The position numbers were made by a program, and so were the translations under genes. The notes below the pieces were generated by a model that had not been told where the DNA came from, did not search any database, and saw only the letters and a list, made by a program, of their open reading frames with translations. A stretch of 20,973 bases of DNA from a virus, in the IMG/VR virus record IMGVR_UViG_3300003690_003730, positions 1-20,973 of that record; one strand, written 5' to 3'. This document shows positions 3,848-20,254 of the stretch, one piece after another (position 1 is the first letter of the stretch; the number at the start of each line of letters is the position of its first letter).

Positions 3848-3853
3848 CTTGCC

Positions 3854-5108: not shown

Positions 5109-5184
5109 GTTCCCGCCTTCGCGGGAATGACGTTCGTTTCATGCACCTAGTCCAGCACCGTCATCCCCGCGCAGGCGGGGATCC
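5109..5184. repeat. REP-like palindrome doublet, copy B
   Basis: Same arrangement as copy A: TTCCCGCCTTCGCGGGAATG at 5110-5129, then after about 30 nt CGTCATCCCCGCGCAGGCGG from 5159. It lies 32 nt after the capsid stop and 35 nt before the next ATG. Even the inner flank (ACGTTCGTT, then a CACC-like stretch) resembles copy A, so the copies share more than the palindromes. Confidence 0.85.
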
Positions 5185-5219
5185 CGACCCACAAGCTCAA
5201 AAGAAAACAGGAGCCCAAA

Positions 5220-5495: not shown

Positions 5496-5537
5496 TCGCA
5501 CACCCCGATCCACCCTTTTCATCCTCCCTCAACCTCG

Positions 5538-5569
5538 CCCCGGTGACTGATGTTGCCGGGGTTTCTTTT
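5538..5569 (+). terminator. Rho-independent terminator after the head module (T1)
   Basis: CCCCGG, 12-nt loop, CCGGGG, then TTTCTTTT. It ends 22 nt before the ATG at 5592, leaving no room for a promoter in between. T7 likewise has its main late terminator just after the capsid gene, with partial read-through lowering tail gene expression, so a similar stoichiometric role is plausible. Confidence 0.85.
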
Positions 5570-5591
5570 CTCCGAGCCAAAGGAATGCTTT

Positions 5592-6662: not shown

Positions 6663-6700
6663 GAACCAAAACTTCTGAGAAAAATGGACGACTGTTTTAT

Positions 6701-6731
6701 ACCGGCAAGGTTTCCTTGCCGGTTTTTCTTT
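6701..6731 (+). terminator. Terminator after the Mtd-like gene (T2), also a candidate DGR hairpin
   Basis: A perfect 10-bp stem, ACCGGCAAGG, loop TTT, CCTTGCCGGT, followed by TTTTCTTT. It lies 39 nt after the stop of the Mtd-like gene and 22 nt before the next ATG. As an RNA it is a strong terminator. As DNA it could extrude as the kind of hairpin or cruciform known to lie 3' of DGR variable regions and to aid homing. Confidence 0.85.
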
Positions 6732-6753
6732 AACCGACAACAAAGGGCTAAAC

Positions 6754-7296
6754 ATGTGTAACAAGATTACCATCTGCACCGAGTTTGACGCCGTCCAGAT
6801 TGCGGGCCTGCAGGTGCCGATTGCCTCCATCCATGCCTTTGCCACCCAGACCGTGCCGGCCGATTATCTGATCTGTGATGGTTCGGCTGTTTCCCGCGCA
6901 GACTATGCCGAGCTTTTCGCTGCACTTGGCACAGTTTGGGGCGAAGGTGATGGCACCACGACTTTCAATATCCCAGATTTGCGCGGCGAGTTCCTGCGCG
7001 GCTTTGATGCTGGCCGTGGTGTGGATGGGGGGCGTGTGTTCGCGTCTGATCAGGGTGATCAGATGCAACAGATCACTGGCAGTATCGGTGTCGTGAGCCG
7101 CTTTAACTCGCCCGAGGGTGTATTTAGCTACACCACTCAATCAGGCACCACCGACGCGACATCCGGTATCACCAATCAGAACCGGCTTCATTTCGATAGC
7201 GCCGATTCCCCGAATGCGCGTGTCGGTGATGAAACACGCCCGCGCAACGTTGCAGTAACTTACGCGATCAAGGCGACTGTTCCTGCCGCGGCGTGA
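6754..7296 (+). CDS. Tail collar-domain protein 1
   Basis: 180 residues; ATG with AAAGGG about 6 nt upstream. The collar domain (Pfam Collar, as in phage T4 gp12 and microcystin-dependent proteins) runs from about residue 23: AFATQTVPADYLICDGSAVS, AELFAALGTVWGEGDGTTTF, then NIPDLRGEFLRGFD. The end DETRPRNVAVTYAIKA is typical of such short fibre proteins. The first 20 residues, KITICTEFDAVQIAG, resemble the start of the Mtd-like protein (VKICSDVNIAQFAA), perhaps a shared docking segment. The middle (about 110-160) differs from its paralogue and would be the exposed receptor-facing part. Flanked by terminators on both sides. Confidence 0.88.
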   Translation: MCNKITICTEFDAVQIAGLQVPIASIHAFATQTVPADYLICDGSAVSRADYAELFAALGTVWGEGDGTTTFNIPDLRGEFLRGFDAGRGVDGGRVFASDQGDQMQQITGSIGVVSRFNSPEGVFSYTTQSGTTDATSGITNQNRLHFDSADSPNARVGDETRPRNVAVTYAIKATVPAAA

Positions 7297-7327
7297 TCTA
7301 AAGCCCGTGATCAAATCCTTTCGAATG

Positions 7328-7361
7328 CCCCGGCAGTATCTCGCTGCCGGGGTTTCTTTTT
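7328..7361 (+). terminator. Terminator after collar protein 1 (T3)
   Basis: A perfect 9-bp stem, CCCCGGCAG, 7-nt loop, CTGCCGGGG, then TTTCTTTTT. It ends 21 nt before the ATG of collar protein 2. The sequence of the stem is nearly the same as in T4 (CCCCGGCA/TGCCGGGG) and shares its outer part with T1. Confidence 0.92.
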
Positions 7362-7382
7362 ACTCAACCAAGGAGACTGCTT

Positions 7383-8018
7383 ATGCAGGGTAATACCCCG
7401 GTCGAATGTGAAATCCTCAATGTTATTCAGGGGGCAGGCATCTGGCCCGATTGCGATGACAAGACCCAGCTTCTACAGGCCATCGAAGCGCTGATTTCTG
7501 GCGGTGGTTCTGGTGGTGGCAGTGTCGTGGCTGGCAGTGAAATCGGTTCGGTTTCAGCTTTCGCCATGCCAACCCCGCCAACTGGCTGGCTGGTCTGTGA
7601 TGGTTCGGCCGTTTCACGTACCGAGTATGCTGATTTGTTTGCGACCATTGGCACGCTTTGGGGCAACGGTGATCAGGTTTCGACCTTCAATCTTCCGGAC
7701 CTGCGGGGCGAATTCATTCGTGGTTCCGATGATGGTCGCGGCGTTGATGATGGGCGTGTGTTTGCGTCGGCACAGGCAGATGCGTTTCAGGGGCATAAGC
7801 ACGAATTCTTTCAAAGCCCAGCAACACTGATGGTAGGCGGATCCTATCATCCAAGTGCCGAGAATTTCGACCAGATCGGCCCATACCAGCCCGGTGTTGG
7901 AGTGGGGAACCCGGTAACCGATAGTGCGAGTGGATCACCACGCGTTGCATCTGAAACCCGCCCGCGCAACATCGCGATGACCTATGCGATCAAGGCGTTC
8001 TATCCGACGTCTGCATAA
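7383..8018 (+). CDS. Tail collar-domain protein 2
   Basis: 211 residues; AAGGAG about 9 nt before the ATG. An N-terminal helical segment (PVECEILNVIQGAGIWPD, DDKTQLLQAIEALI, about 5-38) is followed by a glycine-serine linker GGGSGGGS (about 40-47) and then the collar domain (MPTPPTGWLVCDGSAVSRTE, FNLPDLRGEFIRGSDDGRG). The end is SETRPRNIAMTYAIKAF. The collar domain is a close paralogue of protein 1, also at DNA level (CTGTGATGGTTCGGC shared). The N-terminal segment is instead shared with protein 3. This mosaic points to domain shuffling. Probably a short fibre at the tail tip; the receptor is unknown. Confidence 0.88.
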   Translation: MQGNTPVECEILNVIQGAGIWPDCDDKTQLLQAIEALISGGGSGGGSVVAGSEIGSVSAFAMPTPPTGWLVCDGSAVSRTEYADLFATIGTLWGNGDQVSTFNLPDLRGEFIRGSDDGRGVDDGRVFASAQADAFQGHKHEFFQSPATLMVGGSYHPSAENFDQIGPYQPGVGVGNPVTDSASGSPRVASETRPRNIAMTYAIKAFYPTSA

Positions 8019-8040
8019 GTCTCTCAGTCAAACCCGATAT

Positions 8041-8074
8041 CCCCGGCAGACCGTGTTTGCCGGGGTTCTTTTTT
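8041..8074 (+). terminator. Terminator after collar protein 2 (T4)
   Basis: CCCCGGCA, 9-nt loop, TGCCGGGG, then TTCTTTTTT. It lies 23 nt after the collar 2 stop and 20 nt before the ATG of collar protein 3. Confidence 0.92.
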
Positions 8075-8094
8075 GTCCAAATTGGAGAATTCAT

Positions 8095-8700
8095 ATGCAG
8101 TGTTTAAGGCCGGTTGAAAGTGAAGTTCTGAATGTTGTTCTGGCGGCCGATATTGTTCCGGATCGTATGGACGATACCCAGCTGTTGCAGGCACTTGAAA
8201 CCCTTTTTGGGGGTGGCAGTTCTGGGGGTGGTTCTGTGCCGGTTGCGACCATCCTGCCGTTTGCCGGTTCGGTGGCACCGGAAGGCTTTATGATTTGCGA
8301 TGGTGCGGAACTTCTGGCGGCGGAATATGCCGATCTGTTTACCGCGATTGGCACGACCTATGGTGTCGGGCAGGCCGCTGGTAGTTTCAAACTGCCGGAT
8401 CTGCGTGGTCGGGCGCCGATTGGTGCCGGGCAGGGCGATGGCCTGACGGATCGTGTGATCGGTGCGGCTGGTGGTGAAGAAACCCATCAGCTGACGATTG
8501 ATGAGATGCCCTATCACGAGCACGCTTGGGAAAACTCCTTCTACAGTTTGGTTCGGGTCTCTGGTTCAGGAGGTGAGGGTATTGGATCCGGATCTGAGGA
8601 CTACAGTAACTTGCGTTCTACCGGCTCGTTCCAGGGCGGCGACCAACCGCACAACAACATGCAGCCGTTCCTGGTGGTGAACTACATCATCAAGGTTTGA
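8095..8700 (+). CDS. Tail collar-domain protein 3 (microcystin-dependent-protein-like)
   Basis: 201 residues; TTGGAG about 8 nt before the chosen ATG (an open frame from 7984 crosses the terminator and is rejected). Segments: helical N-terminus ESEVLNVVLAADIVPDRMDD and TQLLQALETLF as in protein 2, glycine-serine linker GGGSSGGGS, collar domain (GSVAPEGFMICDGAELLAAE, GSFKLPDLRGRAPIGAGQGD) and the end PHNNMQPFLVVNYIIKV. That last motif is the hallmark of the microcystin-dependent/MdpB branch of collar proteins, so this is a more distant paralogue than 1 and 2. No terminator follows; its stop overlaps the TTG start of tail tubular protein A, so those two genes are coupled. Confidence 0.88.
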   Translation: MQCLRPVESEVLNVVLAADIVPDRMDDTQLLQALETLFGGGSSGGGSVPVATILPFAGSVAPEGFMICDGAELLAAEYADLFTAIGTTYGVGQAAGSFKLPDLRGRAPIGAGQGDGLTDRVIGAAGGEETHQLTIDEMPYHEHAWENSFYSLVRVSGSGGEGIGSGSEDYSNLRSTGSFQGGDQPHNNMQPFLVVNYIIKV

Positions 8701-9314
8701 TTGCTGCGAACAAGAACCTTTGCGGGGCCCGGGTTTCCGCGTTAAGTGATGTGGCGCTGTGTGCGCGGGCGTTGGTGATGATCGGGGCGGCGCCGATTTC
8801 ATCGTTTGAAGAAGACGTGGCCGAGGCCGAGATTGCCCGGATGCTTTATCCCGCTGTGCGCGACGGGATGCTGGCGGGCTATCCGTGGCGGTTTGCCGGG
8901 CGGGGGTGCTGGTTGTCGCGACTGGCGGACGGGGATGGGGCTGGTTCAGCCAAAGATAACAGCAATCTGTTTGCCTTGCCGCGGGACTTTATCCGGTTGC
9001 TGTCGCTCGAAAATGACGGGGGTAAGATCGCGTCTTTCGAGCTGCGAGATCAGGCGATCAAGGTCGCGGGTGACAGTGCGTATCTTAGCTATGTCGCACG
9101 CTTGCCGGAGGGCAGCTTTCCGGCGTGGTTTGATATGGCGTTGATGGCGCGACTGGCGGCCGAATTTTGCCTGCCGCTGACCGAAAGCAGCACTCGGGCC
9201 GAGTACCTTTTCAAGCGGGCCGAGGACCAGTTGCGCGAGGCACGGCTTGCCGATGCGCAGCAATCGACCCCGCATGCGATTGATGATTTTTCCCTGATTT
9301 CGGCGCGGGGGTAG
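8697..9314 (+). CDS. Tail tubular protein A (T7 gp11-like)
   Basis: 205 residues, against 196 for T7 gp11. It forms the dodecameric gatekeeper ring below the portal. The typical start region is SALSDVALCARALVMIGAAP (about residues 14-33), followed by EAEIARMLYPAVRDGMLAGY and PWRFA, and the family's LPRDFIRLL later on. The first possible start is a TTG overlapping the collar 3 stop (TTGA); no ATG or GTG is available before the conserved block, so the TTG is accepted. The Shine-Dalgarno (AAGG) is weak and close, so reinitiation after collar 3 is likely. A REP-like doublet follows. Confidence 0.9.
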   Translation: MIAANKNLCGARVSALSDVALCARALVMIGAAPISSFEEDVAEAEIARMLYPAVRDGMLAGYPWRFAGRGCWLSRLADGDGAGSAKDNSNLFALPRDFIRLLSLENDGGKIASFELRDQAIKVAGDSAYLSYVARLPEGSFPAWFDMALMARLAAEFCLPLTESSTRAEYLFKRAEDQLREARLADAQQSTPHAIDDFSLISARG

Positions 9315-9363
9315 GGGCGTGGGTCGGGCCTTGGGCGGTGGGTTTGGAGCCTGCGGTGCGAGT

Positions 9364-9440
9364 TTCCCGCCTTCGCGGGAATGACGTTTGTTCCATGAGA
9401 TTATTTTATCTTCCGTCATCCCCGCGAAGGCGGGGATTCC
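9364..9440. repeat. REP-like palindrome doublet, copy C
   Basis: TTCCCGCCTTCGCGGGAATG from 9364, about 28 nt of AT-rich spacer, then CGTCATCCCCGCGAAGGCGG from 9414. The two half-palindromes are near-exact reverse complements. It lies between the tail tube genes A and B. Confidence 0.87.
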
Positions 9441-9482
9441 GATCCGCAAGCGTATCACCTTTATTCATTGAGGGAGCACCCC

Positions 9483-11405
9483 ATGGCACGCCGCGTTCTG
9501 GAGAAAAACACGTTTTCGACCGGCGAACTGGCCCCGGAATTGTGGGGGCGATCGGACTTAAGCGCCTATGCCAATGGGGCAGCGCGCCTGCGCAATGTGT
9601 TTATCGAGCCATCGGGCGGGGTGCGCCGTCGTCCCGGTATTCGATTGATTGATGAATTGCCGGGACCCGCGCGCCTGATCCAGTTCGAGTTCAATACCGA
9701 GCAGACCTATCTGCTGGCCTTTGGCGATAACCGCGCACTGGTGTTTGAAGACGGGGTCGAGACGATCTGGTTTGAAACCACGTTTGGGCCAGAGCACCAT
9801 GATCTTCTGAACTGGACGCAAAGTGCGGATACGCTGTTGGTCGTGCATCCCGATGCTCCGCCGGTCCGGATCACACGCACCGGCGATGGCAGCTGGCAAA
9901 CCAGCCTTTGGGCCTGGCGTGAGACCAATTTCAGAACCAGCCAGCCCTATTACAAGTTTGTCGAGCCGGCTGCGACCCTGACGCCATCGGGTACCAGTGG
10001 GACCGTCACGCTCACGGCCAATATGGATGTGTTCGTGCCAGAGCATGTCGGGACCCTGTGGCGGATTCAGGGGGTTGAGGGTGAGATCACCAGCGTGTCC
10101 GATGCCCGAACCGCGCAGATTGCGCTGAAGCAGGCGTTGCCAAACGCGAATGCCACCGTCGATTTTGTTGAGCAGGCCTTTTCCGAGGTGCGGGGTTGGC
10201 CGCGCAGCGTGACCTTTCATCAGGATCGATTGATCATTGGCGGATCGCGCGATCTGCCCAACCGGTTGTGGATGTCGAAATCGGGCGATCTGTTTAATTT
10301 CGAGCTCGGCGAAGGGCTTGATGACGAGGCGATTGAATTTGCCCTGCTGGCCGATCAGGTCAATGCGATCACCGGCATTTTCGCCGGGCGTCATTTGCAG
10401 GTCTTTACCAGCGGGTCGGAATGGATGGTGACGGGCGATCCATTGACACCGGCCAATGTGCAGGTCACGCGCCAGACCCGGATCGGCAGCCAAAGTGATC
10501 GCACCGTGCCGCTGGTCAATGTTGATGGCGCAACGCTGTTTGCCGGGCGGAGCGGGCGCGAAATTCGCGAATTCCTGTTTACCGATGTCGAGCAGGCGTA
10601 TGGATCGGCCGATCTGGCGTTGCTGTCGCGCCATCTGATCCATCATCCGATTGATCAGGCCTTTGATCCGGATCGGCGGCTTTTGCATGTGGTGATGCGC
10701 GACGGATCGCTTGCCACACTGACCCTTTACCGCAGCGAGGCGATCACCGCCTGGTCGGCGCAGTCGGTGGCGGGATGTGCCTTTGCATCCGTTTCGGTGT
10801 CAGGTGGCGACGTCTATGTCGTGCTGGAACGCGATGGCCGCTATTTCCTAGGTGTGTTTGACCCGCAATGCGGCTTTGATCTTTATCGTCGCCAAGCGGT
10901 GGTTGCGGGCGAAGCACCGCGCCGGCATTGGGGCAATCTTGATCCGCTGGATGGGCTTGATATCAGTGTCTGGCACGATGGCGTTCTTGCCGAAGATATA
11001 GCGGTTGCCGGGGGTACGATTACATTGCCTGATCACATCGGGGCTGTATCGGAAATCGAGGTCGGCTTGCCCTTTACCCATGAAATTTATGCCCTGCCGC
11101 CGGCCGCATCGGATGGCAGTCGCCCGCATGGCGGCAATGCCGTGCGGCTGGTCTCGGTGACCTTGCGTTTGCAGGAAACCGGGCAGCTGCGCGTCGATAC
11201 CGGTCGGGGATTGCGTGATGTCGCGCTGCCGGTTTCCACCGATGACAAAGATGCGCTTTATAGCGGCGATATCACGCTCCGTGCACTGGGCTGGCGGCGG
11301 GGCAGTGGCGGGGGACTGAAAAGTGGACTTTGGCGCATCGCCGGGGCATTGCCCCGGCCTTTTTTGTTGCTTGGTGTGGCCAGTGAAATGGGGGTGAATG
11401 ACTGA
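9483..11405 (+). CDS. Tail tubular protein B (T7 gp12-like nozzle)
   Basis: 640 residues from the ATG behind GAGGGAG; T7 gp12 has 794, so this is a short member. It forms the hexameric nozzle of the short tail. Family blocks: NTFSTGELAPELWGRSDLSA near the N-terminus, LRNVFIEPSGGVRRRPG (about 37-53), FHQDRLIIGGSR (about 245-256), LWMSKSGDLFNF, FTSGSEWMVTG (about 307-317) and VTRQTRIGSQSD. The GG-RRRPG motif and the GSEW motif are characteristic. Its last base is shared with the start of the next ATG. No break is seen. Confidence 0.92.
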   Translation: MARRVLEKNTFSTGELAPELWGRSDLSAYANGAARLRNVFIEPSGGVRRRPGIRLIDELPGPARLIQFEFNTEQTYLLAFGDNRALVFEDGVETIWFETTFGPEHHDLLNWTQSADTLLVVHPDAPPVRITRTGDGSWQTSLWAWRETNFRTSQPYYKFVEPAATLTPSGTSGTVTLTANMDVFVPEHVGTLWRIQGVEGEITSVSDARTAQIALKQALPNANATVDFVEQAFSEVRGWPRSVTFHQDRLIIGGSRDLPNRLWMSKSGDLFNFELGEGLDDEAIEFALLADQVNAITGIFAGRHLQVFTSGSEWMVTGDPLTPANVQVTRQTRIGSQSDRTVPLVNVDGATLFAGRSGREIREFLFTDVEQAYGSADLALLSRHLIHHPIDQAFDPDRRLLHVVMRDGSLATLTLYRSEAITAWSAQSVAGCAFASVSVSGGDVYVVLERDGRYFLGVFDPQCGFDLYRRQAVVAGEAPRRHWGNLDPLDGLDISVWHDGVLAEDIAVAGGTITLPDHIGAVSEIEVGLPFTHEIYALPPAASDGSRPHGGNAVRLVSVTLRLQETGQLRVDTGRGLRDVALPVSTDDKDALYSGDITLRALGWRRGSGGGLKSGLWRIAGALPRPFLLLGVASEMGVND

Positions 11406-11851
11406 TGGGTGGATTTACATCAATCGTGCCGATGGCGGCATCGGTGCTGCAAACCGGACAACGGATTAGCGCCAACCAGACCAATGCACAAAGCCGGATA
11501 GATCAAACCGAAGCCGCCCGTCAGGCGGAGCTGGCCGAGATCGCAGCGCGCGAGCGCGAAGACGCCACCAATCGCGAAGAAGACCTGCGTCGTCGTCAGG
11601 CAACCGCGCGCGCCCGGCAAGGGGCATCGGGCCTGATGGCGGGGGGGGCGGGATCGGCCAGTGCGGTTCTGGCGGGTTACGAAAAAGCCGCCCGGCAGGA
11701 TGCAGACCAGAGTGCCGATGCCGCCGCGAGAAACCGCAACCGCATCAACCAACAGGCCGCCTGGCGTGAAAAGTCGCTGTTGCGATCGACACAGGATGAC
11801 ACGGTTGCACGGCTGAATGCCTGGTTCTCCAAGCGTGATGGCTGGGGCTGA
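11405..11851 (+). CDS. Small coiled-coil protein, candidate internal/ejection protein (T7 gp14 position)
   Basis: 148 residues, starting in a TGATG overlap with tail tubular protein B. The first 18 residues are hydrophobic and small-residue rich (FTSIVPMAASVLQT), then a long polar helix with heptad-like Ala/Glu/Arg repeats (about 30-80), a glycine hinge GLMAGGAGSAS (about 77-87) and a second helix to the end. T7 gp14 (196 residues), the smallest ejected core protein, follows gp12 in the same position and is also Ala/Gln-rich and helical. The assignment is by position and composition. No gp15- or gp16-like large proteins follow. Confidence 0.7.
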   Translation: MGGFTSIVPMAASVLQTGQRISANQTNAQSRIDQTEAARQAELAEIAAREREDATNREEDLRRRQATARARQGASGLMAGGAGSASAVLAGYEKAARQDADQSADAAARNRNRINQQAAWREKSLLRSTQDDTVARLNAWFSKRDGWG

Positions 11852-11886
11852 GGTTCTGGGCTGAGGTTTATTAGGGGGAAGAAGCT

Positions 11887-13290
11887 ATGGGCGCTGTTTT
11901 TGCCAATCAGATCCGTGCCGCCATTGCCTTTGTCGGTGATGGCGCACGCGATACCTTTCCGTTTGATTTTGATGTGTTTGATGCCGGTGATGTGCGTATC
12001 AGCATCAATGGGACGGAAACCGATACCGGCTTTCACATCGCACTCATGCCCACCGATCAGGGCGGGGGTGGCGTGGTGCGGTTCGAAACGCCGCCGGCAA
12101 ATGGCAGCACCATCCATATTGCCCGGCAGTTGCATTTGCGCCGCCTGAGCAGCTTTGACGCCATGTCGATCCCGCGTGGGGATGCGCTTGAACGTGATCT
12201 TGATTTCATGACGGCCGCCCTTGGTGACGTGGATCGCGCGCTTTCCGGGGCTTTGCGCTTTGGCGCGGATCAGGGGGAGGGCGCGTCGGCAGAGCTTCCG
12301 GTGATCAAGCCCGGTCGGGCGCTGATCTGGAATGCGGAAGGCACGGGGCTTGGCAACGGGCCGACGGCCGATGATATCGCGGTCGCAAGCCATAAGGCAA
12401 GCCAGGCACAAGATGCCGCCAACCGGGCCGAGGCCGCCGAAAGCCGGTCTGAAATCGCGGTCGCGTCGTTTGAACGATCAAGCGCCTCGGCGATGCTCGA
12501 TCTTGATTTTCGCAGTGGTGATGTTCTGGCGTGGGAGGATGAGCGCCGCATGCCGGTGATCGATGCGCCGGTCAGCCGGATCATGGATATCCGCGAAACC
12601 GGATCGCTGGTCAGGCTTTCCAGCGGCGCGCAATTGACCTTGCCGGTGGCGTCCGTTGCGCGCAATGGCGTTCGGTTTCGGGTGTTTAACGGTGATGGCA
12701 CGATGGTCGATATTACGACCGCATCGGGCGATATCATCCGCCCGACCAATGGCGGGGCGGAAGTCAGCGTTTACCCCCTGCCGACACGGGGCGACATGGT
12801 CGATCTCATCTGTGATGGCACGCGCTGGTTTGCCGCTCCGATCCATGAAAGCGGCCCGGTGGTGAAGCTTTTGCGTGTGGCCAGCCAATCCATCCCGGCC
12901 GGCGGGGCGTTTCTGGTCGAATGGGATCAGGTGATTGAAGACAGCCACGGGCTTTATGACAGTGGCGTGCATGGTATCACCGGCCTCGCGCCGGGCTTTT
13001 ATCATGTCGATATCGGGGTGCGCTTCCCGATTACCGACCAGTCGGTCTCTACCACCTTGTCGCTCGAACGCTTTGACGGCACCGATTGGTCGAGCCACTT
13101 GCAGGCCAATGACATTACCGCCATGGGCAGCGGCGCGGCGCACAGTTTGCGCCTGAATGGTATTGCCCGGATTAATCCCACACCCGGCACCGGTTTGCGC
13201 CTGCGTCTGTCGCATAGCGATGCGCAAACACGCGACATTGGCGCAAGCGGTCTTTTGACCTGGTGTCACATTCATCGCATTGGCGGCTAG
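11887..13290 (+). CDS. Tail fibre protein with T7 gp17 N-terminal domain and C1q-like tip
   Basis: 467 residues; GGGGGAAGAAGCT precedes the ATG. Residues 1 to about 130 match the T7 tail fibre attachment domain: IRAAIAFVGDGARDTFPFDF, DVRISINGTE, VVRFETPPANGSTIHIARQL and PRGDALERDLDFM. About 160-205 is an Ala-rich coiled coil (SQAQDAANRAEAAESRSEIA), then a beta-rich middle with a DITTASGDIIRP motif. The C-terminal ~140 residues (LLRVASQSIPAGGAFLVEWD, GITGLAPGFYHVDIGVRF) look like a C1q/TNF jelly-roll trimer, a fold used by fibre tips to bind receptors. The N-domain would dock on the portal-tail junction. The tip assignment is an inference from pattern. Confidence 0.88.
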   Translation: MGAVFANQIRAAIAFVGDGARDTFPFDFDVFDAGDVRISINGTETDTGFHIALMPTDQGGGGVVRFETPPANGSTIHIARQLHLRRLSSFDAMSIPRGDALERDLDFMTAALGDVDRALSGALRFGADQGEGASAELPVIKPGRALIWNAEGTGLGNGPTADDIAVASHKASQAQDAANRAEAAESRSEIAVASFERSSASAMLDLDFRSGDVLAWEDERRMPVIDAPVSRIMDIRETGSLVRLSSGAQLTLPVASVARNGVRFRVFNGDGTMVDITTASGDIIRPTNGGAEVSVYPLPTRGDMVDLICDGTRWFAAPIHESGPVVKLLRVASQSIPAGGAFLVEWDQVIEDSHGLYDSGVHGITGLAPGFYHVDIGVRFPITDQSVSTTLSLERFDGTDWSSHLQANDITAMGSGAAHSLRLNGIARINPTPGTGLRLRLSHSDAQTRDIGASGLLTWCHIHRIGG

Positions 13291-13344
13291 TACGCCAACC
13301 CGCGCCTGCCATCCATCGACACACACTGATCGGAGATGCATCCA

Positions 13345-14451
13345 ATGGGATTGCGTTATCAGCCGCTTGCGGCCTGCATGAATGTTTCGCGCGCCAGCAC
13401 CAAGCTTGTTCGCGGCCAAAATGGCCTGCTTGAAACCCGCGCGATTGATGAACCGGCTTATGACCATGATCGGCTTGGTCGTCGCTTGGGCCTTCTGATC
13501 GAGGGGGCGGCGACCAACCTGCTGCGCTACTCGACCACCTTTGACAACGCGCTTTGGGAAAAGAATAGCGGTGTGGTGGTAAGTGCCAGCACAATCGCCG
13601 CCCCGGATGGCAGCCAAACCGCGATGCAGCTTGATCTGCCCGGAAGTGCGGCGGGTGCGGATGGCTTGTATCAGAATGTCGGCGGGCTTGTGGCCAGTGA
13701 AACCTATAGCTTTGCCGTCTGGATGCGTGCGGTATCAGGCACGGCCGACATCACGCTTGGCGGAATTGACGGGGCTTCCACACATGGTTTTGCCTTGGAT
13801 GAAAACTGGCAGCGGGTGTGGATTGCAGAACCGGCATCCGGTGCGACCCGCTATCCGAAAATCAGTACGGCAGTTTCGGCCCTTCCGGCCTCTGTCCTGA
13901 TCTGGAATGCGCAGCTTGAAGCCGGGCCTGCGCCGACCAGTGATATCATCAGCAACGGCATCCCGGCCGCGCGGGCGTGCGATGATGTGCGGCTTGATCC
14001 GGGCGACTGGTTCGCGCAGGGGCGCGGGACATTGGTTTTTGATCTTCATACCGCGTCCGACTGGGCGGGCATCTGGCGGATCGTGCAGCTTTACTCGCTC
14101 AGCCTTAATGATGATCACCTTGATCTTGGCTATGACAGCGATGCCAATCAGCTCCGCATTTCGCTGCGAAAGGATGGCGTGCCGCTCGTCACCCAGTCGC
14201 TTTATGGCACGCTTGCCAAGGATGCCCGTCATCGCATCGCGCTGGCGTGGGATGACGATGTGATCTCGGTCGGGCTGGATGGCGTGGTGCTGTCCTCGCC
14301 CGATGGCTTTGCCATGCCGCGCAATTTTTCCAACATCGTGCTGGGATCGTTTGGCGGCACCGACAAGGCACTCAACGGCCATCTGCGCAATCTGGCCTAT
14401 TGGCCGACAAAGCTATCCAATGCGCGGCTGTCTGAACTTTCGGTGGTTTAA
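13345..14451 (+). CDS. Lectin-like two-domain tail-associated protein
   Basis: 368 residues. I chose the ATG at 13345 because the GGAG is 9 nt upstream of it but directly abuts the alternative ATG at 13336. The first half contains GLLIEGAATNLLRYSTTFDN and ALWEKNSGV (about 50-80), then a beta-sandwich resembling carbohydrate-binding modules found in phage tail proteins. The second half (about 225-368) has DDHLDLGYDSDANQLRISLR and ends GHLRNLAYWPTKLSNARLSE, the typical last strands of a LamG/concanavalin-like domain. No catalytic motif is seen. It follows the fibre gene and probably binds surface glycans as a fibre partner or minor spike. Fold calls are by eye. Confidence 0.75.
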   Translation: MGLRYQPLAACMNVSRASTKLVRGQNGLLETRAIDEPAYDHDRLGRRLGLLIEGAATNLLRYSTTFDNALWEKNSGVVVSASTIAAPDGSQTAMQLDLPGSAAGADGLYQNVGGLVASETYSFAVWMRAVSGTADITLGGIDGASTHGFALDENWQRVWIAEPASGATRYPKISTAVSALPASVLIWNAQLEAGPAPTSDIISNGIPAARACDDVRLDPGDWFAQGRGTLVFDLHTASDWAGIWRIVQLYSLSLNDDHLDLGYDSDANQLRISLRKDGVPLVTQSLYGTLAKDARHRIALAWDDDVISVGLDGVVLSSPDGFAMPRNFSNIVLGSFGGTDKALNGHLRNLAYWPTKLSNARLSELSVV

Positions 14452-14456
14452 GCCTC

Positions 14457-14768
14457 ATGAGCACGGATAAAACACCCGACCCGATCATGGCCCTGCAAAC
14501 CCGGCTGCTGGGTGAATTGCCCGATGACATTGCCATGGCGCGCGATGCCTATCACCGACTGGCGGGGGAGGCGGCCGGGATCATGGACGCCAGGGAATTC
14601 TCCGCCCATCAGGCGGCCTGCAAGGCAGCCCTTGGGCATCTTGAAAGCCTGATCAAGCTTCTGCGCTGGGCGTGTGAGGGGGCGGGAGAAGTCGATGAAG
14701 ACGCACCTGAGAAAAGCAATGTCGATCAGTTGATTGCCGAGGCAAAGCGTGGTCTTGCAGGCGCCTGA
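14457..14768 (+). CDS. Small helical protein, candidate terminase small subunit
   Basis: 103 residues, all predicted helical: LQTRLLGELPDDIAMARDAY, then FSAHQAACKAALGHLESLIK, and a C-terminal NVDQLIAEAKRGL. It starts 5 nt after the previous stop. Its size and its place between the fibre genes and the large terminase equal those of T7 gp18 (89 residues), the small terminase. No helix-turn-helix is obvious, so DNA recognition cannot be claimed. It could also be an unrelated tail chaperone. Confidence 0.6.
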   Translation: MSTDKTPDPIMALQTRLLGELPDDIAMARDAYHRLAGEAAGIMDAREFSAHQAACKAALGHLESLIKLLRWACEGAGEVDEDAPEKSNVDQLIAEAKRGLAGA

Positions 14769-14774: not shown

Positions 14775-14807
14775 GCGCCCCACCATTCAATGAGCATGGT
14801 AGGGCGC
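14775..14807. terminator. Inverted repeat between convergent genes, probable bidirectional terminator
   Basis: GCGCCCCACCAT, 9-nt loop, ATGGTAGGGCGC: 11 of 12 positions pair. It lies in the 44-nt gap between the plus-strand gene ending at 14768 and the minus-strand gene ending at 14813. No long U tract is present on either side, so intrinsic termination would be weak. Confidence 0.55.
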
Positions 14808-14812: not shown

Positions 14813-15259
14813 TCAGTAGGACAATGTCACCAATTCGCATTTGGCGTTCTTGCCACCGGCATAGTCGTAGAAGACTTTCATGAAACTGCCGCTACCGTTT
14901 TGGATATTCAGGGTGATCTGATAGCGATTTGCCGTGGTCGTGGTTGTTGCCGTGCCGCGGCGGATTTCAGATTCAAGGTCTGACGGGGTCTGAATTCCGG
15001 CATTCGGCCCGCGTTCACGAACGCGGGCATAAAAGTGAAATCCTTTGTCCTGCCAGATCATAGGCAACATGTTGCTCCACTGGCTGTTCGTAACCTGTTT
15101 CCACGCATTGTCGACATTGCTGCCGCTGAGTGAAAACGTTGTCGGGGCACAGGCCGATGGCGGCTTGGCGTGTGCAGGCAGGGCCAGCAAAAGACCAAGT
15201 GTCAGGAAAAGAAAGGCTGCCATCAGGCCGCCAAAACGCATGCTGCGATAGGTCTGCAT
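14813..15259 (-). CDS. Secreted protein of unknown function (probable prophage cargo gene)
   Basis: 148 residues from the ATG at 15259, which has AAGGAG 9-14 nt upstream; an earlier in-frame ATG would put that site inside the gene. Residues 1-31 form a clear Sec signal peptide: basic start, LMAAFLFLTLGLLLALPAHA, cleavage after AHA. The mature part has two cysteines, CAPT near its start and AKCEL near its end, which could pair in the periplasm. Other segments are NAWKQVTNSQWSNMLPMIW, FHFYARVRERG, a TATTTTTANRY linker and FMKVFYDYAGGKN. I do not recognise the family. It runs against the late operon between two packaging genes, the usual mark of a lysogenic-conversion (moron) gene. No clear promoter is seen. 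Confidence 0.75.
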   Translation of the reverse strand: MQTYRSMRFGGLMAAFLFLTLGLLLALPAHAKPPSACAPTTFSLSGSNVDNAWKQVTNSQWSNMLPMIWQDKGFHFYARVRERGPNAGIQTPSDLESEIRRGTATTTTTANRYQITLNIQNGSGSFMKVFYDYAGGKNAKCELVTLSY

Positions 15260-15361
15260 TATCGAGTTTCTCCTTGTTGTCATGGTGTTCAGACACAGCT
15301 TTGACGTCGCCCGGACGCGAACGTGACAGACCGCAACAACCAAATTGATGGAGTGAGGAAA

Positions 15362-16882
15362 ATGCCAATGGCACAGGCCCGCTTCGCCGAATTCGTCTGG
15401 ATCTGGGATCAGATGTTGGGGCTCAGCCTGCCGACCCATCACCGGAGGATGGCCGATTGGCTTGAGGACTGCTGGCAGTCGGGCAAACGCGAGATGCTTT
15501 TGATGGCGTTTCGCAATTCTGGGAAATCGACACTGGTCGGGTTGTTTTGTGCCTGGGTGCTTTATCGTGATGCCGATTTGCGCATTCTGGTGCTGGCCGC
15601 CGATCTGGATCTGGCGAAAAAGATGGTGCGCAACGTCAAGCGCGTGATTGAGCGTCATCCGCTGATGGGGGCCCTGTTGCCCGAAAAGCTGATCGATTGG
15701 GGGAGCGAGCGCTTTACCGTGGCGCGGACGGCTGTGTTGCGTGATCCATCGATGCAGGCGGTAGGCATTGGCGGCAACATTACCGGGTCGCGTGCCGATC
15801 TGGTGATTTGCGATGATGTCGAGGTGCCAAAAAACAGCGATACCGCCCATAAACGTGCCGAGCTGCGCGAAAAGCTTGGCGAGATTGCCTATGTGCTGGG
15901 GCCAAGCGGTGCGCAGCTTTATGTCGGCACCCCGCACAGCTATTATTCGATCTACGCCGATGAAGCGCGAACTGAAATCGGGGAAGTCGCCCCGTTCCTG
16001 GCCGGTTTTTCACGCTTTGAACTTCCCATCGTCAATAAGGACGGGACATCAAATTGGCCGGAACGGTTTGACGCAGCCGCGATTGATGCCATGCGGATCC
16101 GCACCCCAGAGCGCAAGTTTCAAAGCCAGATGATGCTTGAAATGATGGCCCCGGTGGCCGGGATGCTCGACCCCGCAAAATTGCGGTTCTATGACGACAC
16201 GGCCGAGATCACGCATGGCAATGGCCGTATGACGCTTCGGATTGGCGGGCGAACCATGGTCGCCAGTGCCTGCCATTTTGATCCGAGTTTCGGGTCGCTT
16301 CGGGGCGACGGGGCGGTGGTGGCCTGTGTTTATATCTGTGATCAGGGGGAATACTGGTTGCAGGATATCGCATGGCTGCGCGCGGCCGACCCGGGCGATC
16401 CGGCCGAAAGCGGTGACAGGCCATGGCGCGATGAAGCCAGCCAGCTTTGTGCGCAGGTGGCCGACTTTATGGCGCGCCATCATTTGCCGTCGGTCCGGGT
16501 CGAGACCAATGGCATTGGCCGGTTCCTGCCCAATATTCTTAGGCGTGAACTGAAATCAATCGGATGGGCGGCAAGCGTCGTAGAACATCATGAGAGTACC
16601 AACAAGGCCACCCGGATCGAGGATGCCTTTGGTGCGGTGATGGGGGCAGGATTGCTGCATGTCCATCGCGCTGTTTGCCAGACACCGTTCCTGCGCCAGA
16701 TGCGCGATTGGCATCCGGATAACAGCAATGCCAACAAAAGTGCCGATGACGGGCTTGATGCGGTGGCGGGCTGTATTTTGCATGATCCGGTGCGTTTGCC
16801 GCGGGTCGATATGCCGATCAAACGCGCCGACTGGCGGGCACAAAGCGGGATTTTCCGGGCCGATAGCCATTTCAACCCGTGA
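15362..16882 (+). CDS. Terminase large subunit
   Basis: 506 residues from the ATG at 15362 with GTGAGGAAA upstream; a GTG at 15323 would add 13 residues and has no ribosome site. It is the packaging motor: ATPase plus headful or site-specific nuclease. ATPase: Walker A RNSGKST (51-57), Walker B DLVICDDVE (146-154), a coupling-type YVGTPH (187-192). Nuclease of RNase H fold: HFDPSFGS (305-312, D307), VRVETNGIGR (378-387, E381) and SADDGLDAVAG (460-470). All key acidic residues are present. As in T7 it stands at the end of the structural genes rather than before the portal. Confidence 0.95.
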   Translation: MPMAQARFAEFVWIWDQMLGLSLPTHHRRMADWLEDCWQSGKREMLLMAFRNSGKSTLVGLFCAWVLYRDADLRILVLAADLDLAKKMVRNVKRVIERHPLMGALLPEKLIDWGSERFTVARTAVLRDPSMQAVGIGGNITGSRADLVICDDVEVPKNSDTAHKRAELREKLGEIAYVLGPSGAQLYVGTPHSYYSIYADEARTEIGEVAPFLAGFSRFELPIVNKDGTSNWPERFDAAAIDAMRIRTPERKFQSQMMLEMMAPVAGMLDPAKLRFYDDTAEITHGNGRMTLRIGGRTMVASACHFDPSFGSLRGDGAVVACVYICDQGEYWLQDIAWLRAADPGDPAESGDRPWRDEASQLCAQVADFMARHHLPSVRVETNGIGRFLPNILRRELKSIGWAASVVEHHESTNKATRIEDAFGAVMGAGLLHVHRAVCQTPFLRQMRDWHPDNSNANKSADDGLDAVAGCILHDPVRLPRVDMPIKRADWRAQSGIFRADSHFNP

Positions 16883-17631: not shown

Positions 17632-17955
17632 ATGACCCTGCCTGTGACCCAGACGGTTGATGTGATCTGGTGGATCACGGCTGTTGAAATCCCTGCTGTC
17701 GCCAGCCTGTTCTGGCTGCATTGGCGGATGCGTTCCGAACTGCTTGGCCGCGTCGAACAGCTCCGCACCCGCGAGGAATCAGATGCCAGCGACCTGCGCG
17801 ATGCCTTGGCTGCCTTCAAGCTCGATGTCGCGCGCAACTATGTCTCCATCCCCTATCTCAAGGATGTCGAAAAGCGCCTGACCGGCCATTTGCTCCGGAT
17901 TGAGGCCAAGCTCGACATGCCCCCCATCCCGAGCAAAAAGGATCTGAGCTTATGA
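17632..17955 (+). CDS. One-TM plus coiled-coil protein of the lysis cassette
   Basis: 107 residues; GAGGCCCC precedes the ATG. One membrane helix, VIWWITAVEIPAVASLFWLHW (about 11-31, shown in two parts by VDVIWW and SLFWLHW), is followed by a charged helix (about 33-95) ending in LKDVEKRLTGHLLRIEAKLD. The ending is familiar from hypothetical proteins next to endolysins in alphaproteobacterial prophages. A short N-terminal helix with a long coiled coil would suit a pinholin, an i-spanin-like protein or an endolysin regulator; I cannot choose. Its last 4 nt overlap the endolysin start, so they are co-translated. Confidence 0.7.
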   Translation: MTLPVTQTVDVIWWITAVEIPAVASLFWLHWRMRSELLGRVEQLRTREESDASDLRDALAAFKLDVARNYVSIPYLKDVEKRLTGHLLRIEAKLDMPPIPSKKDLSL

Positions 17956-18422
17956 CCGACCCCCAAACCCTGACCAGATCGGTATCAACGCCGGTTACTG
18001 ATCCCGATGCCCTGCCCGAGGTCGAAGTTCTTGCCCGTACCCTCTATGGCGAGGCGCGTGGCGAGGAGCTTGCCGGGATCGAGGCCGTGGCATCGGTCAT
18101 CCTCAACCGGGTTGCGTTTGTGAAACGGCGCGGGCGCTATTGGTGGGGCAATGACATCAAATCGGTATGCCTGAAACCGGCACAGTTTTCCTGCTGGAAC
18201 GAAGCGGACCCCAATCGCAAGAAACTGCTGGCACTCAGCCCGCGTGACCCGGCCTATCGCCTGTGCAAACGCATCGCCAAGCGCGCGGTGGTGGGGGAGC
18301 TTCCCGATCAAACCGACGGTGCTACCCATTATCACACCCATGCAGTTGATCCGTTCTGGGCGCGTGGGCATGTGCCGGTCGCAGAAATCGGCAATCACCT
18401 GTTCTACAAAGACATCGGTTAA
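17952..18422 (+). CDS. SleB-family cell wall hydrolase (endolysin)
   Basis: 156 residues. It would cut the peptidoglycan at the end of infection. The Hydrolase_2/SleB domain runs from about residue 24 to the end: VLARTLYGEARGEELAGIEA with the likely catalytic Glu34 in GEARGE, SVILNRV, KPAQFSCWNE (the conserved Q-FSCW), DGATHYHTH and the closing VAEIGNHLFYKDI. No signal peptide or membrane helix, so it depends on a holin to reach the wall. ATGA overlap with the preceding gene. Confidence 0.92.
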   Translation: MTDPQTLTRSVSTPVTDPDALPEVEVLARTLYGEARGEELAGIEAVASVILNRVAFVKRRGRYWWGNDIKSVCLKPAQFSCWNEADPNRKKLLALSPRDPAYRLCKRIAKRAVVGELPDQTDGATHYHTHAVDPFWARGHVPVAEIGNHLFYKDIG

Positions 18423-18596
18423 TCCGATGGCCGCTCTTGCCGCCAAGACGGACTGCAAAGAAGCATTGGCTGCGCTTCCGGTGCTCACGTACTGACACGT
18501 ACGCTGCGCGCCGGTTCTCACCACTACTTCTTTTCGCCACGTCTTACCGATAATCCCGACCATCGTGAAGGCTTCAAAAATTGCCAGAGGTGCAAA
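18423..18596. other. Spacer between endolysin and holin
   Basis: 174 nt without a supported gene. It contains a short palindrome CGTAC-TGACA-CGTACG at 18488-18503 within a GC-rich stretch, and the holin ribosome site CCAGAGG about 6 nt before the ATG. No promoter or U-tailed hairpin seen. Confidence 0.45.
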
Positions 18597-19085
18597 ATGA
18601 TTCCTGCATTGCTCGCCCAGATCGGCCTGCCGCTTTTGATGAAGGCGGTGGGTGCGGGGCTTGACCATATCGACAACCCGATTGCCAAAACCGCGGCCGA
18701 GGGCCTGAAACATGTAGAGGCGGCTGTGACCAAGGGCGACGTCACGCCCGAACAAATCAACGCGGCCAACCGCCACACCGAACGCATGGCCGAAATCGAA
18801 CTGGCGCGTGATACCGAAACACTTAAATCCGTCAACCGCACCATCCGGGCCGAGGTCGCCAGCGAAGACGCCTTTGTCCGGCGCTGGCGCCCGAGCTTCG
18901 GCTACGCCGTGGCCCTCACCTGGATCATGACCATGGGCGCCATCGCCTACGCCATCATCCTCACCCCGCTTCAGGCCCCGGCGATCATCGCAGCACTCGT
19001 CAACACCAGCCCGATCTGGGGCATTGCGTTGGGTGTTTTGGGCGTGAGTGTTGTGAAAAGGAGTGCGGATAAGAAATTATCGTGA
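18597..19085 (+). CDS. Holin, 3-TM gene transfer agent type
   Basis: 162 residues. Matches the layout of the GTA_holin_3TM family: N-terminal hydrophobic IPALLAQIGLPLLMKAVGAG (2-21), a long amphipathic middle with EGLKHVEAAVTKGDVTPEQI and IRAEVASEDAFVRRWRPSFG, then two membrane helices (YAVALTWIMTMGAIAYAIIL, about 102-121, and AALVNTSPIWGIALGVLGVS, about 132-151) and a short basic tail. The RRWRPSFGY motif before the second helix is typical. It would permeabilise the inner membrane for the SleB endolysin. Its stop touches the tandem repeats of the toxin-antitoxin promoter. Confidence 0.9.
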   Translation: MIPALLAQIGLPLLMKAVGAGLDHIDNPIAKTAAEGLKHVEAAVTKGDVTPEQINAANRHTERMAEIELARDTETLKSVNRTIRAEVASEDAFVRRWRPSFGYAVALTWIMTMGAIAYAIILTPLQAPAIIAALVNTSPIWGIALGVLGVSVVKRSADKKLS

Positions 19086-19201: not shown

Positions 19202-19672
19202 ATGTCGGCAATTCGCAAAGACGATTTTGGCGGTAGATTGCCAACGCAAATTGAAAGCGCGACAGCGGATCAGCTTCGCCAGATCATTGCTTCGCAGACA
19301 AAAGAAGGTGAAGATACCAAGCTGACAGTTACGCCCGGTGACGGTAAGCCAGAAACGATCACGCTAAGCCCGGCGCTGACGGAGAGCCTGATGGCTTTGC
19401 TGCGTCTGGTTTCCAGCCGTCAAGGATTTCAGATGGTGCCGCTTTCGGTAGACTTGACCACGCAGCAGGCGGCAGATCTGTTGAATGTTTCTCGGCCCTA
19501 CTTGATCAAGCTGCTCGAAGCGGGTGATATCAAATTTACAACTGTAGGTCGGCATCGCAGGATTAAGGCTGAGGATTTGTTCGCTTATAAAGCCCGGCGG
19601 GATGCCGAACGTGACGAGGCCTTGTCTGAATTGGCAAAGATGGATGCAGAGCTTCTTCTGAAAGGATATTAA
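19202..19672 (+). CDS. Helix-turn-helix antitoxin (excisionase/MerR-like)
   Basis: 156 residues; GGAGATAAG precedes the ATG. The DNA-binding HTH_17-type domain is at about 82-130: SVDLTTQQAADLLNVSRPYL, IKLLEAGDIKFTTVGRHRRI, KAEDLFAYK. This is the excisionase-family layout, strand-turn-helix with a G-HRRI wing. The N-terminal ~80 residues (ATADQLRQIIASQTK ... ALTESLMALLRLVSSRQGF) may dimerise, and the charged C-terminal helix after 130 may clamp the toxin. Proteins of this kind precede PIN toxins in many proteobacteria and act as antitoxin and autorepressor. It ends 6 nt before the toxin start. A phage excisionase is the alternative, but the PIN neighbour argues against it. Confidence 0.85.
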   Translation: MSAIRKDDFGGRLPTQIESATADQLRQIIASQTKEGEDTKLTVTPGDGKPETITLSPALTESLMALLRLVSSRQGFQMVPLSVDLTTQQAADLLNVSRPYLIKLLEAGDIKFTTVGRHRRIKAEDLFAYKARRDAERDEALSELAKMDAELLLKGY

Positions 19673-19678
19673 TCGCAG

Positions 19679-20254
19679 ATGACATATCGGGCAGACCATT
19701 TTACAGCACTTCTTGATGCCTGTGTTCTGGCCGATGCGTTCAAGCGGAACTTGTTACTCAGTCTAGCGCGAGCTGAACTGTTTCGTCCCCGCTGGAGCCC
19801 TCAGATCCTTGATGAAACCGAACGGGCGATCCTAAAAATCACCAAGGGCGAGGCGGATGGGACCAAGCAGCGTGCGGCAATTGAGCGGGCATTCAGAGAT
19901 GCCTGCGTGACCGGATATGACGCGCTGATTTCGGCGGTGTCACTGCCAGATCCCGATGATCGCCACGTTCTGGCCGCGGCAATTCACACCAACGCGCAGG
20001 TTCTGGTGACAGATAACCTCAAAGATTTTCCGCCGAGTGAATTGGCGAAGTTCGGGGTTGAGCTCAAATCACCTGATGAATTCATCGCAGATACCATAAC
20101 CCTGCATGAGCAAACAGCCTTTGGCGCATTGAAGGCCATGCGAGTGCGCTATCAAAACCCGGCTCTTACAACGGATAAGATCATTCAGTTTGCGGAAAGC
20201 CGAGGTTTGATGACGACCGCGCTTTTGCTCAAGGAGTATGAGCAATATTGGTGA
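19679..20254 (+). CDS. PIN-domain ribonuclease toxin
   Basis: 191 residues. PIN domain of the PIN_3 type: ALLDACVLADAFKRNLLLSL with the first catalytic Asp13, PQILDETER with Glu46, LPDPDDRHVLAAAIHTNAQ with Asp91/Asp94, and VLVTDNLKDFP with Asp112. The four-acidic site that binds the metal is complete. The last ~60 residues (FIADTITLHEQTAFGALKAM onward) are a helical extension as in this subfamily. Such toxins cleave RNA and are inhibited by the partner antitoxin; the pair may stabilise the prophage or block other phages. Target RNA unknown. The start, 6 nt after the antitoxin stop, has a weak ribosome site (ATCGCAG), suggesting coupling. Confidence 0.88.
   Translation: MTYRADHFTALLDACVLADAFKRNLLLSLARAELFRPRWSPQILDETERAILKITKGEADGTKQRAAIERAFRDACVTGYDALISAVSLPDPDDRHVLAAAIHTNAQVLVTDNLKDFPPSELAKFGVELKSPDEFIADTITLHEQTAFGALKAMRVRYQNPALTTDKIIQFAESRGLMTTALLLKEYEQYW

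What the first reader, a model, noticed from the sequence alone, without database searches (positions are those of the whole stretch)
14813..15259. Unrecognised secreted cargo protein between the terminase genes
A minus-strand gene with an ideal signal peptide and two cysteines interrupts the packaging module. Its compact mature domain (about 117 residues, Cys near each end, Arg/Glu-rich centre with FHFYARVRERG) has the look of a secreted effector, inhibitor or superinfection-exclusion factor. I know no family for it.
Basis: partly seen in the sequence, partly recalled or inferred. Interest (0 to 1): 0.55.

Follow-up and report, generated by a model that had tools for sequence, protein, structure and literature searches.

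The report
Exported cargo in a tamed phage
A small exported protein of no known family sits in a swappable slot of a phage-derived gene cluster that one genus of marine bacteria appears to have inherited as a normal part of its chromosome, where related bacteria keep toxin and anti-phage genes instead.

Summary
The gene is real: 148 codons, ribosome-binding site, signal sequence, two invariant cysteines, dN/dS 0.03-0.32. No significant family match (best Pfam E 0.12, PHROG 0.18). All seven relatives found lie beside the same T7-type terminase; five are in Thalassospira genomes, two in viral contigs. The surroundings change the story. The terminase occurs once in each of 29 Thalassospira genomes (a remnant in one) and lies 101-208 kb from recA, same strand, in all 20 genomes where both share a contig. 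Sixteen cluster genes co-diverge with recA; no tyrosine integrase lies within 120 kb; the holin matches Pfam's GTA_holin_3TM. That is the profile of a domesticated phage, possibly a gene transfer agent. The p103-terminase gap is a cargo slot: of 28, 8 empty, 5 with this gene, 15 with other content such as RES/Xre, Fic, PADLOC defence candidates or a second small exported Cys protein. A weak model (pLDDT 63) plus invariant His75 and Thr145/Ser147 hint at a BECR/RelE-type ribonuclease fold, unproven. Best reading: exported, toxin-like or anti-phage cargo of a domesticated podovirus-type element. Architecture well supported; function inferred.

The parts
14813..15259 (-). Orphan protein gene with signal sequence (148 aa + stop); has its own start signals
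15167..15259 (-). Signal peptide, residues 1-31 (cleavage after AHA inferred by eye; no predictor was run)
   Evidence: AHA29-31 invariant in 6 of 6
14816..15166 (-). Mature domain, 117 residues; C37 and C141 invariant; invariant H75 and T145/S147
15270..15275 (-). Ribosome-binding site AAGGAG
   Evidence: same letters in 5 of 6 copies, GGGAG in L015
15303..15319 (-). 17-nt element CGCGTCCGGGCGACGTC upstream of the gene; exact match in 4 of 41 loci searched, all four carriers of this gene (the fifth carrier, G010, lacks it); may be its promoter or operator, function unknown
14775..14807 (.). Hairpin between the convergent cargo gene and p103; possible terminator without a T run
   Evidence: z -2.22; 5 of 200 shuffles fold as well; by eye the stem is also in L003, L004, L006 and, with a longer loop side, L014, not in L015; not called by the terminator scan
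14457..14768 (+). p103, 103-aa protein at the small-terminase position; left edge of the slot
15362..16882 (+). T7-type terminase large subunit; right edge of the slot
1302..14451 (+). Morphogenesis module: head-tail connector (PF12236), T7-type scaffold (PF05396), capsid protein (PF19821), tail and collar genes, internal-virion-protein-like gene, fibres
17952..19085 (+). Lysis module: cell wall hydrolase (PF07486) and GTA_holin_3TM holin (PF11351, E 2.1e-16, over cut-off)
19202..20254 (+). HTH_17 + PIN_3 gene pair downstream of the lysis module; a second variable place

Best explanation
The gene is a separately encoded cargo gene in a variable slot (p103 | terminase) of a T7-like, phage-derived cluster that Thalassospira inherits vertically as a single-copy chromosomal locus: a domesticated phage, gene-transfer-agent-like. 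Its product is exported by Sec and the two invariant cysteines can form one disulfide outside the cytoplasm. The exported domain most likely has a BECR/RelE-type (phage BECR-like) ribonuclease fold and works as a toxin-like or anti-phage effector that is harmless to its maker because it folds only after export. Shown: gene, coding constraint, slot, cargo company, co-divergence of the chassis, position relative to recA, no tyrosine integrase nearby. Inferred: own promoter, export, disulfide, fold, activity, target, and that the cluster makes particles. Of the stated confidence, the architecture alone would stand near 0.85; the mechanism lowers it.
For: Slot: 28 of 29 Thalassospira genomes have a measurable p103-terminase interval: 8 empty (13-128 bp), 5 with this gene, 15 with other content. 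Of 9 slot proteins chosen for Pfam, 7 had a family: Fic, GIY-YIG, Xre antitoxin, RES, DUF2971, DUF4365, GNAT. All 5 slot proteins chosen for PADLOC matched: SoFic 1e-119, PDC-S31 9.6e-44, PDC-M02A/B 1.2e-62/7.8e-94, PDC-S49 5.2e-26; this gene did not. An 87-aa 4-Cys protein with a signal sequence fills the slot in G009, G020, G014, with a 58% partial match in G023. Cargo moves apart from the chassis: G001/G002 cargo 99%, TerL 94%; G001/G003 cargo 79%, TerL 97%. Domesticated chassis: one TerL match in each of 29 of 29 genus genomes (G008 only a 43-residue remnant) and of 128 of 297 order genomes, 28 of the 128 being Thalassospira; gene order kept in 29 of 29 Thalassospira loci for the genes present, 25 of them with all 16 genes tested; TerL 101-208 kb from recA, same strand, in 20 of 20 genomes with both on one contig; Mantel rho to recA 0.66-0.83 for 16 chassis genes (each p 0.003, the smallest possible with 299 permutations) against 0.19 (p 0.033) for p103 and 0.20 (p 0.067) for collar2; median dN/dS MCP 0.027, portal 0.059, TerL 0.110, recA 0.019 among nine close genomes; nearest tyrosine recombinase on the same contig 122 kb away (G022), none nearer in 29 genomes (distances read off); holin PF11351 GTA_holin_3TM. 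Fold: 12 of the top 20 VIA rows are RelE/HigB/YoeB/BrnT/CDI-toxin entries (about 8 different proteins; family labels recalled), 3 more RNase A type; BFVD rows include a polyvalent protein (prob 0.97) and MuF-C (prob 0.82); invariant His in a helix and Thr/Ser in the last strand fit the published BECR layout (PMC5512222 passages).
Against: The models are poor (pLDDT 57.8 and 62.9) and H75 lies in a stretch under 50. Best Z is 4.0, none reaches 5. No Foldseek hit reaches E 0.001; apart from BrnT (rank 1, E 0.27, prob 0.38) none of the 50 PDB rows listed is a RelE-type toxin, and the domain matched in the polyvalent protein was not identified. NTF2-like and designed folds also appear. No sequence family supports BECR. 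An RNase outside the cytoplasm lacks an obvious target and no immunity gene was recognised beside it. No promoter consensus was found. The low rho of collar2 may come from mixing its paralogues collar1-3, and p103 still has p 0.033. With recA proteins the rho outside the genus is only 0.42 (p 0.027, 12 genomes), against 0.68 with recA DNA. Only some slot ORFs were scanned and they were picked because they looked like genes of this kind. No particle, transfer or expression data exist.
Confidence: 0.4

Rival explanations
1. Non-enzymatic envelope factor: the exported domain binds a phage receptor, an injection channel or a host envelope protein and excludes other phages.
For: Signal sequence; sits in a slot that elsewhere holds PADLOC defence candidates; a second unrelated small Cys protein with a signal sequence uses the same slot. 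A shared envelope role would explain both.
Against: Many invariant charged residues (H75, R79, R81, R83, D94, E96, E98, R100, K137, K140) look more like an active site or nucleic-acid surface, though binding surfaces can look alike. No exclusion family matched.
Confidence: 0.3
2. Ordinary moron of an active temperate podovirus.
For: Cargo on the opposite strand with its own start signals; the window is a virus record; S24-type repressor gene next to the cluster in 21 loci, as a prophage would have.
Against: Single copy in 29 of 29 genomes at one place, co-divergence with recA, no tyrosine integrase within 120 kb; no integrase, polymerase or replication family among matches of the window genes, though five window genes (g1, g2, g3, p103, g235) have no informative match. 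TerL identity to isolated phages is 25-30% in the 12 rows listed of 2436 records, all 2436 under 60%, while bacterial chromosomes hold relatives of 36-57% and one partial match of 65%. MCP is nearer to phages: 46%, and 62% to a 5-kb fragment.
Confidence: 0.12
3. Lysis-timing or virion-associated accessory protein of the cluster, for example a brake on the cell wall hydrolase.
For: Signal sequence; a lysis module is in the same cluster.
Against: Absent from 23 of 28 chassis with a measurable slot; exchanged apart from the chassis; opposite strand to the late genes.
Confidence: 0.1
4. Chance open frame.
For: ORF length alone is reached by 104 of 2000 Markov sequences.
Against: dN/dS 0.033-0.317 over 15 pairs, constant length, invariant cysteines.
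Confidence: 0.02

Closest known systems
BECR-fold ribonucleases: RelE/HigB/BrnT, CDI toxins, phage BECR (MuF-C, PBECR)
   Same: Predicted order helices then four strands; invariant His in a helix and Thr/Ser in the last strand; top rows of weak fold searches.
   Different: No sequence match; signal sequence and a cysteine pair; no antitoxin or immunity gene recognised beside it; low-confidence model.
Gene transfer agents (RcGTA, BaGTA, podovirus-like FpGTA of Faecalibacterium)
   Same: Phage-derived head, tail, packaging and lysis genes, holin of Pfam's GTA_holin_3TM family, vertical inheritance, purifying selection, no tyrosine integrase nearby.
   Different: T7-type terminase and scaffold. 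TerL and MCP show no BLASTP similarity to Sulfitobacter phage pCB2047-C, whose TerL nests in the BaGTA clade (PMC9662315 passage). [quoted passage not shown] DNA transfer not shown here.
Phage and satellite defence hotspots between conserved late genes (recalled: P2/P4-type hotspots)
   Same: One fixed junction holds different toxin-antitoxin or defence genes in different strains.
   Different: Here the chassis itself is inherited vertically and single-copy; two unrelated small Cys proteins with signal sequences also use the slot.

Membership tests
[quoted passage not shown]
   Model shows helices then four strands, but pLDDT 62.9 and the His helix begins in a stretch under 50; best Z 4.0
[quoted passage not shown]
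   H75, T145, S147 invariant in 6 of 6 sequences; H75 starts helix 75-83 and T145 lies in strand 142-147, but only in the weak model; distance between them not measured
BECR / phage-BECR ribonuclease fold | Significant profile match to a BECR family | tested here: not met
   No BECR family among Pfam hits of the 6 members at E<=10 (HMMER filters drop most weak hits); no PDB sequence relative
BECR / phage-BECR ribonuclease fold | RNase activity | not testable with these tools
   needs purified protein
Gene transfer agent | Phage-derived structural, packaging and lysis genes under purifying selection | tested here: met
   families; dN/dS of TerL, MCP, portal: (other genes not computed)
Gene transfer agent | Vertical inheritance with the host at a fixed locus | tested here: met
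   within Thalassospira; outside the genus 10 of 12 fetched loci keep gene order and rho is 0.42-0.68
Gene transfer agent | No integrase or replication module | tested here: met
   no PF00589 match within 120 kb on the same contig in 29 of 29 genomes, some contigs ending 5-10 kb from terL; none among family matches of the window genes. Serine recombinases were not sought; g1-g3, p103 and g235 have no informative match; the 19202-19672 gene has an excisionase-type HTH domain beside a PIN gene
Gene transfer agent | Particles package random host DNA and transfer it | not testable with these tools
   needs particle DNA sequencing
BaGTA lineage | Homologous TerL/MCP | tested here: inconclusive
   No BLASTP similarity to the proxy phage pCB2047-C; BaGTA proteins themselves were not at hand
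RcGTA lineage | Homologous head-tail cluster | not tested
   RcGTA proteins were not compared; only the holin matches a Pfam family named for gene-transfer release
T7-like podoviral packaging/morphogenesis | T7-type TerL and scaffold | tested here: met
   NF033889 E 7.8e-125 over cut-off; PF05396 Phage_T7_Capsid E 8.3e-11 over cut-off

The most novel reading that the evidence does not exclude
Thalassospira and many relatives carry an ancient podovirus-derived gene transfer agent, independent of RcGTA and BaGTA, whose packaging genes contain a built-in, exchangeable cargo slot for toxins and defence genes; this gene is an exported, disulfide-dependent BECR-type effector of that slot, a ribonuclease-like toxin made for outside the producing cytoplasm.
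Probability: 0.3. Interest if true: 0.85.

Novelty: new variant of a known kind. Interest (0 to 1): 0.6.

Why it matters
If right, a locus that a virus catalogue lists as viral is a long-kept bacterial trait: 29 of 29 Thalassospira genomes and 128 of 297 sampled genomes of the order hold one terminase of this kind, as do 53 of 385 sampled genomes of the class. It would be a podovirus-type case of domestication in Alphaproteobacteria. PMC6821227 lists Rhodospirillales with the row '24 10 0 15 0 0' in its table of RcGTA-like clusters; I read the zeros as no cluster found, but the column heads were not in the passage seen. The slot gives a ready place to look for small exported effectors and new defence genes.

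Tried and rejected
Sequence families: Pfam, PHROGs, NCBIfam, PADLOC and PDB gave no usable match for this protein. The Pfam ATP1G1 hit (E 0.12, residues 4-30) falls on the signal sequence, PHROG 6023 (E 0.18, residues 7-76) covers it in part, MT-RNR1 (E 0.31, one of six members) and antibody chains (E 0.25-0.86) are chance-level. Distant relatives: weak profile hits in G028, G087, G043, G342, G513 and G601. For L016, L023 and L024 I read the six-frame translations (the hmmsearch step in that script failed on a file error): they lie antisense to or across other frames, so I judged them noise. L017-L019 have internal stops and were not pursued further. In those genome searches only the first candidates of each genome were scored. 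The MT839170 match (32.8%, E 0.2) was not pursued. Viral-contig scans gave two copies (97 and 93%); plasmids none.

Fold: NTF2-like, cystatin-like and designed folds also appear in the lists; I do not exclude them. I had the BECR fold in mind before reading the lists (no call records this), so the reading may lean towards it. A profile comparison with MuF-C was planned, but its search of 240 genomes gave only 2 matches, too few for a profile. Promoter and terminator scans found nothing.

Synteny: outside Thalassospira 10 of 12 fetched loci keep gene order for the genes found; G501 and G507 do not; several of these stretches were cut short. The cargo gene itself has only 5 genomes, so its rho of 0.70 (p 0.157) says nothing. 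recA and TerL trees look alike by eye but no topology test was run.

Literature: nine searches on the locus, its host and gene transfer agents listed no paper that I recognised as describing this locus; one more was for BECR. Most listed papers were not opened. The library holds only open-licence PMC papers and no preprints, so this is no proof of absence.

Full report
What was checked. The ORF at 14813-15259 (minus) exists as described: 148 aa, ATG, an AAGGAG ribosome-binding site, a hydrophobic signal sequence ending AHA, two cysteines. Its length alone is not evidence: 104 of 2000 Markov sequences of the same gap reach it. Conservation is. Copies were found in three Thalassospira contigs (100, 97 and 82% identity), two viral contigs (97 and 93%) and, by a search of 29 genomes of the genus, in 5 of 29 (the tally says 6, the sixth, G028, is a weak match judged noise). 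Six distinct sequences align with few gaps, all in the signal sequence. Over 15 pairs dN/dS of the mature part is 0.033-0.317. In the most distant copy (G010) the open frame is exactly 148 aa, which supports the start. In samples of the class (385 genomes) and order (297), with only the first candidates scored, I accept no relative outside Thalassospira: 3 of the 4 class matches and 2 of the 7 order matches are weak hits with internal stops or short frames.

What the chassis is. The next gene is a T7-type large terminase (NF033889, E 7.8e-125). The cluster also has a head-tail connector, T7-type scaffold, capsid protein, tail and collar genes, an internal-virion-protein-like gene, fibres, a cell wall hydrolase and a holin of Pfam family GTA_holin_3TM (PF11351, E 2.1e-16; the name tells what members are annotated as, not that this one serves gene transfer). 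All 26 window ORFs that I treated as genes were scanned in at least one library; none matched an integrase, polymerase or RNA polymerase, one has an excisionase-type HTH domain beside a PIN gene, and g1, g2, g3, p103 and g235 had no informative match. In the 29 genus genomes no tyrosine recombinase match lies within 120 kb of terL on the same contig; the nearest is 122 kb away in G022 (some contigs end near terL, and serine recombinases were not sought). The terminase has exactly one match in each of 29 of 29 genus genomes, of 128 of 297 order genomes (28 of the 128 are Thalassospira) and of 53 of 385 class genomes. Isolated phages are far away: 2436 records match, all under 60%, and the 12 rows listed lie at 25-30%. 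MCP is closer to phages: 46% to Pelagibacter phage EXVC031P and 62% to a 5-kb faecal phage fragment.

Vertical inheritance. In all 20 of 29 genomes where recA and terL share a contig, terL lies 101-208 kb downstream of recA on the same strand. Flanking genes recur: an S24-type repressor gene within 9 kb upstream in 21 loci (18 Thalassospira and G509, G562, G678), and an oxidoreductase-like gene (my reading) downstream in 13; other loci have different inserts there. Tree distances of 16 chassis genes correlate with recA (rho 0.66-0.83), while p103 (0.19, p 0.033) and collar2 (0.20, p 0.067) do so weakly. That contrast serves as an internal control, with the caveat that collar2 has paralogues in the cluster. 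Across 40 genomes terL and recA DNA give rho 0.85; among the 12 genomes outside the genus 0.68, but 0.42 with recA proteins. Median dN/dS over 36 pairs of nine close genomes is 0.027 for MCP, 0.059 portal, 0.110 TerL, 0.019 recA. Against: G008 has lost ttB to p103 and most of terL, and two of 12 loci outside the genus are not collinear.

The slot. Between p103 and terL, 28 of 29 genomes can be measured: 8 empty (13-128 bp), 5 with this gene (588-605 bp, and 3556 bp in G010), 15 with other content. I scanned a chosen part of the slot ORFs, not all. Of 9 in Pfam, 7 had a family: Fic, GIY-YIG, Xre antitoxin, RES, DUF2971, DUF4365, GNAT. Of 5 in PADLOC all matched: SoFic, PDC-S31, PDC-M02A, PDC-M02B, PDC-S49; this protein did not. 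ParDE-like pairs in G010 and G017 are my reading of the ORFs. An 87-aa 4-Cys protein with a signal sequence fills the slot in G009, G020 and G014, with a partial 58% match in G023, and in viral loci L055, L057 and L064. This gene moves apart from its chassis: G001 and G002 share 99% of the mature domain but 94% of TerL, G001 and G003 79% but 97%, G003 and G027 96% but 90%. A 17-nt element upstream occurs in 4 of 41 loci, all carriers. So the unit that moves probably includes its own upstream region.

What the protein may do. No sequence family fits. Two AlphaFold models are weak (pLDDT 57.8 and 62.9). They give helices followed by four strands. In the second look at PDB matches, 12 of the top 20 rows are RelE, HigB, YoeB, BrnT or CDI-toxin entries (about 8 different proteins) and 3 are RNase A types, but the best Z is 4.0. 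Foldseek's first PDB row is BrnT (E 0.27, prob 0.38), and no other listed row is a RelE-type toxin. BFVD rows include a polyvalent protein (E 0.028, prob 0.97; matched domain not identified) and two MuF C-terminal-domain proteins (prob 0.82 and 0.21). PMC5512222 (passages only) describes BECR RNases as helix plus four or five strands, commonly with a His in the helix and Ser/Thr in strand 4, found solo in phages and as MuF-C. Here H75, T145 and S147 are invariant in 6 of 6. This is a lead that several weak lines share, not a result. A disulfide C37-C141 formed only after export would keep the protein inactive in the maker; that is inference.

Verdict. Shown: a real, constrained, orphan gene with a signal sequence; an exchangeable slot; a vertically kept phage-derived chassis in Thalassospira. 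Likely: toxin-like or anti-phage cargo, by company and weak fold evidence. Unknown: activity, target, whether particles form. [quoted passage not shown] PMC10304870 (passages) reports no RcGTA homologues in its strains, Thalassospira MIT1004 among them, and only incomplete or questionable prophage regions. Azospirillum particles of about 10 kb, thought to be GTAs, are described in PMC3899980 (passages); whether this cluster is related to them was not tested.

Noticed in passing
5550-6662: Tail protein with an Mtd second domain (PF21916, E 2.6e-22) and a weak FGE match, as in targets of diversity-generating retroelements (recalled). Found by tblastn in 3 of the 29 Thalassospira loci (G001, G026, G006), some of which were cut short. 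No reverse transcriptase was looked for.
   Followed up: partly
14457-14768: p103, at the small-terminase position, co-diverges with recA only weakly (rho 0.19, p 0.033) although its neighbours do so strongly; it may be exchanged together with the slot.
   Followed up: partly
18597-19085: Holin matches Pfam GTA_holin_3TM (PF11351, E 2.1e-16, over cut-off), a family named for gene-transfer release.
   Followed up: partly
19202-20254: HTH_17 + PIN_3 pair downstream of the holin, present in some relatives only: a second variable place, perhaps a toxin-antitoxin pair.
   Followed up: partly
L128 (G009) slot; also L131 (G020), L139 (G014): A second, unrelated 87-aa 4-Cys protein with a signal sequence uses the same slot on the plus strand; no convincing Pfam family (best E 0.0063, under cut-off).
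   Followed up: partly
upstream flank of 21 loci (f0): Divergent S24/LexA-like repressor gene next to the cluster, also in three genomes outside Thalassospira: candidate regulator.
   Followed up: partly
window 1-20973: Large ejection proteins of the T7 gp15/gp16 kind (recalled) were not recognised among the scanned genes; only a small internal-virion-protein-like gene at 11405-11851 (phrog_418).
   Followed up: no
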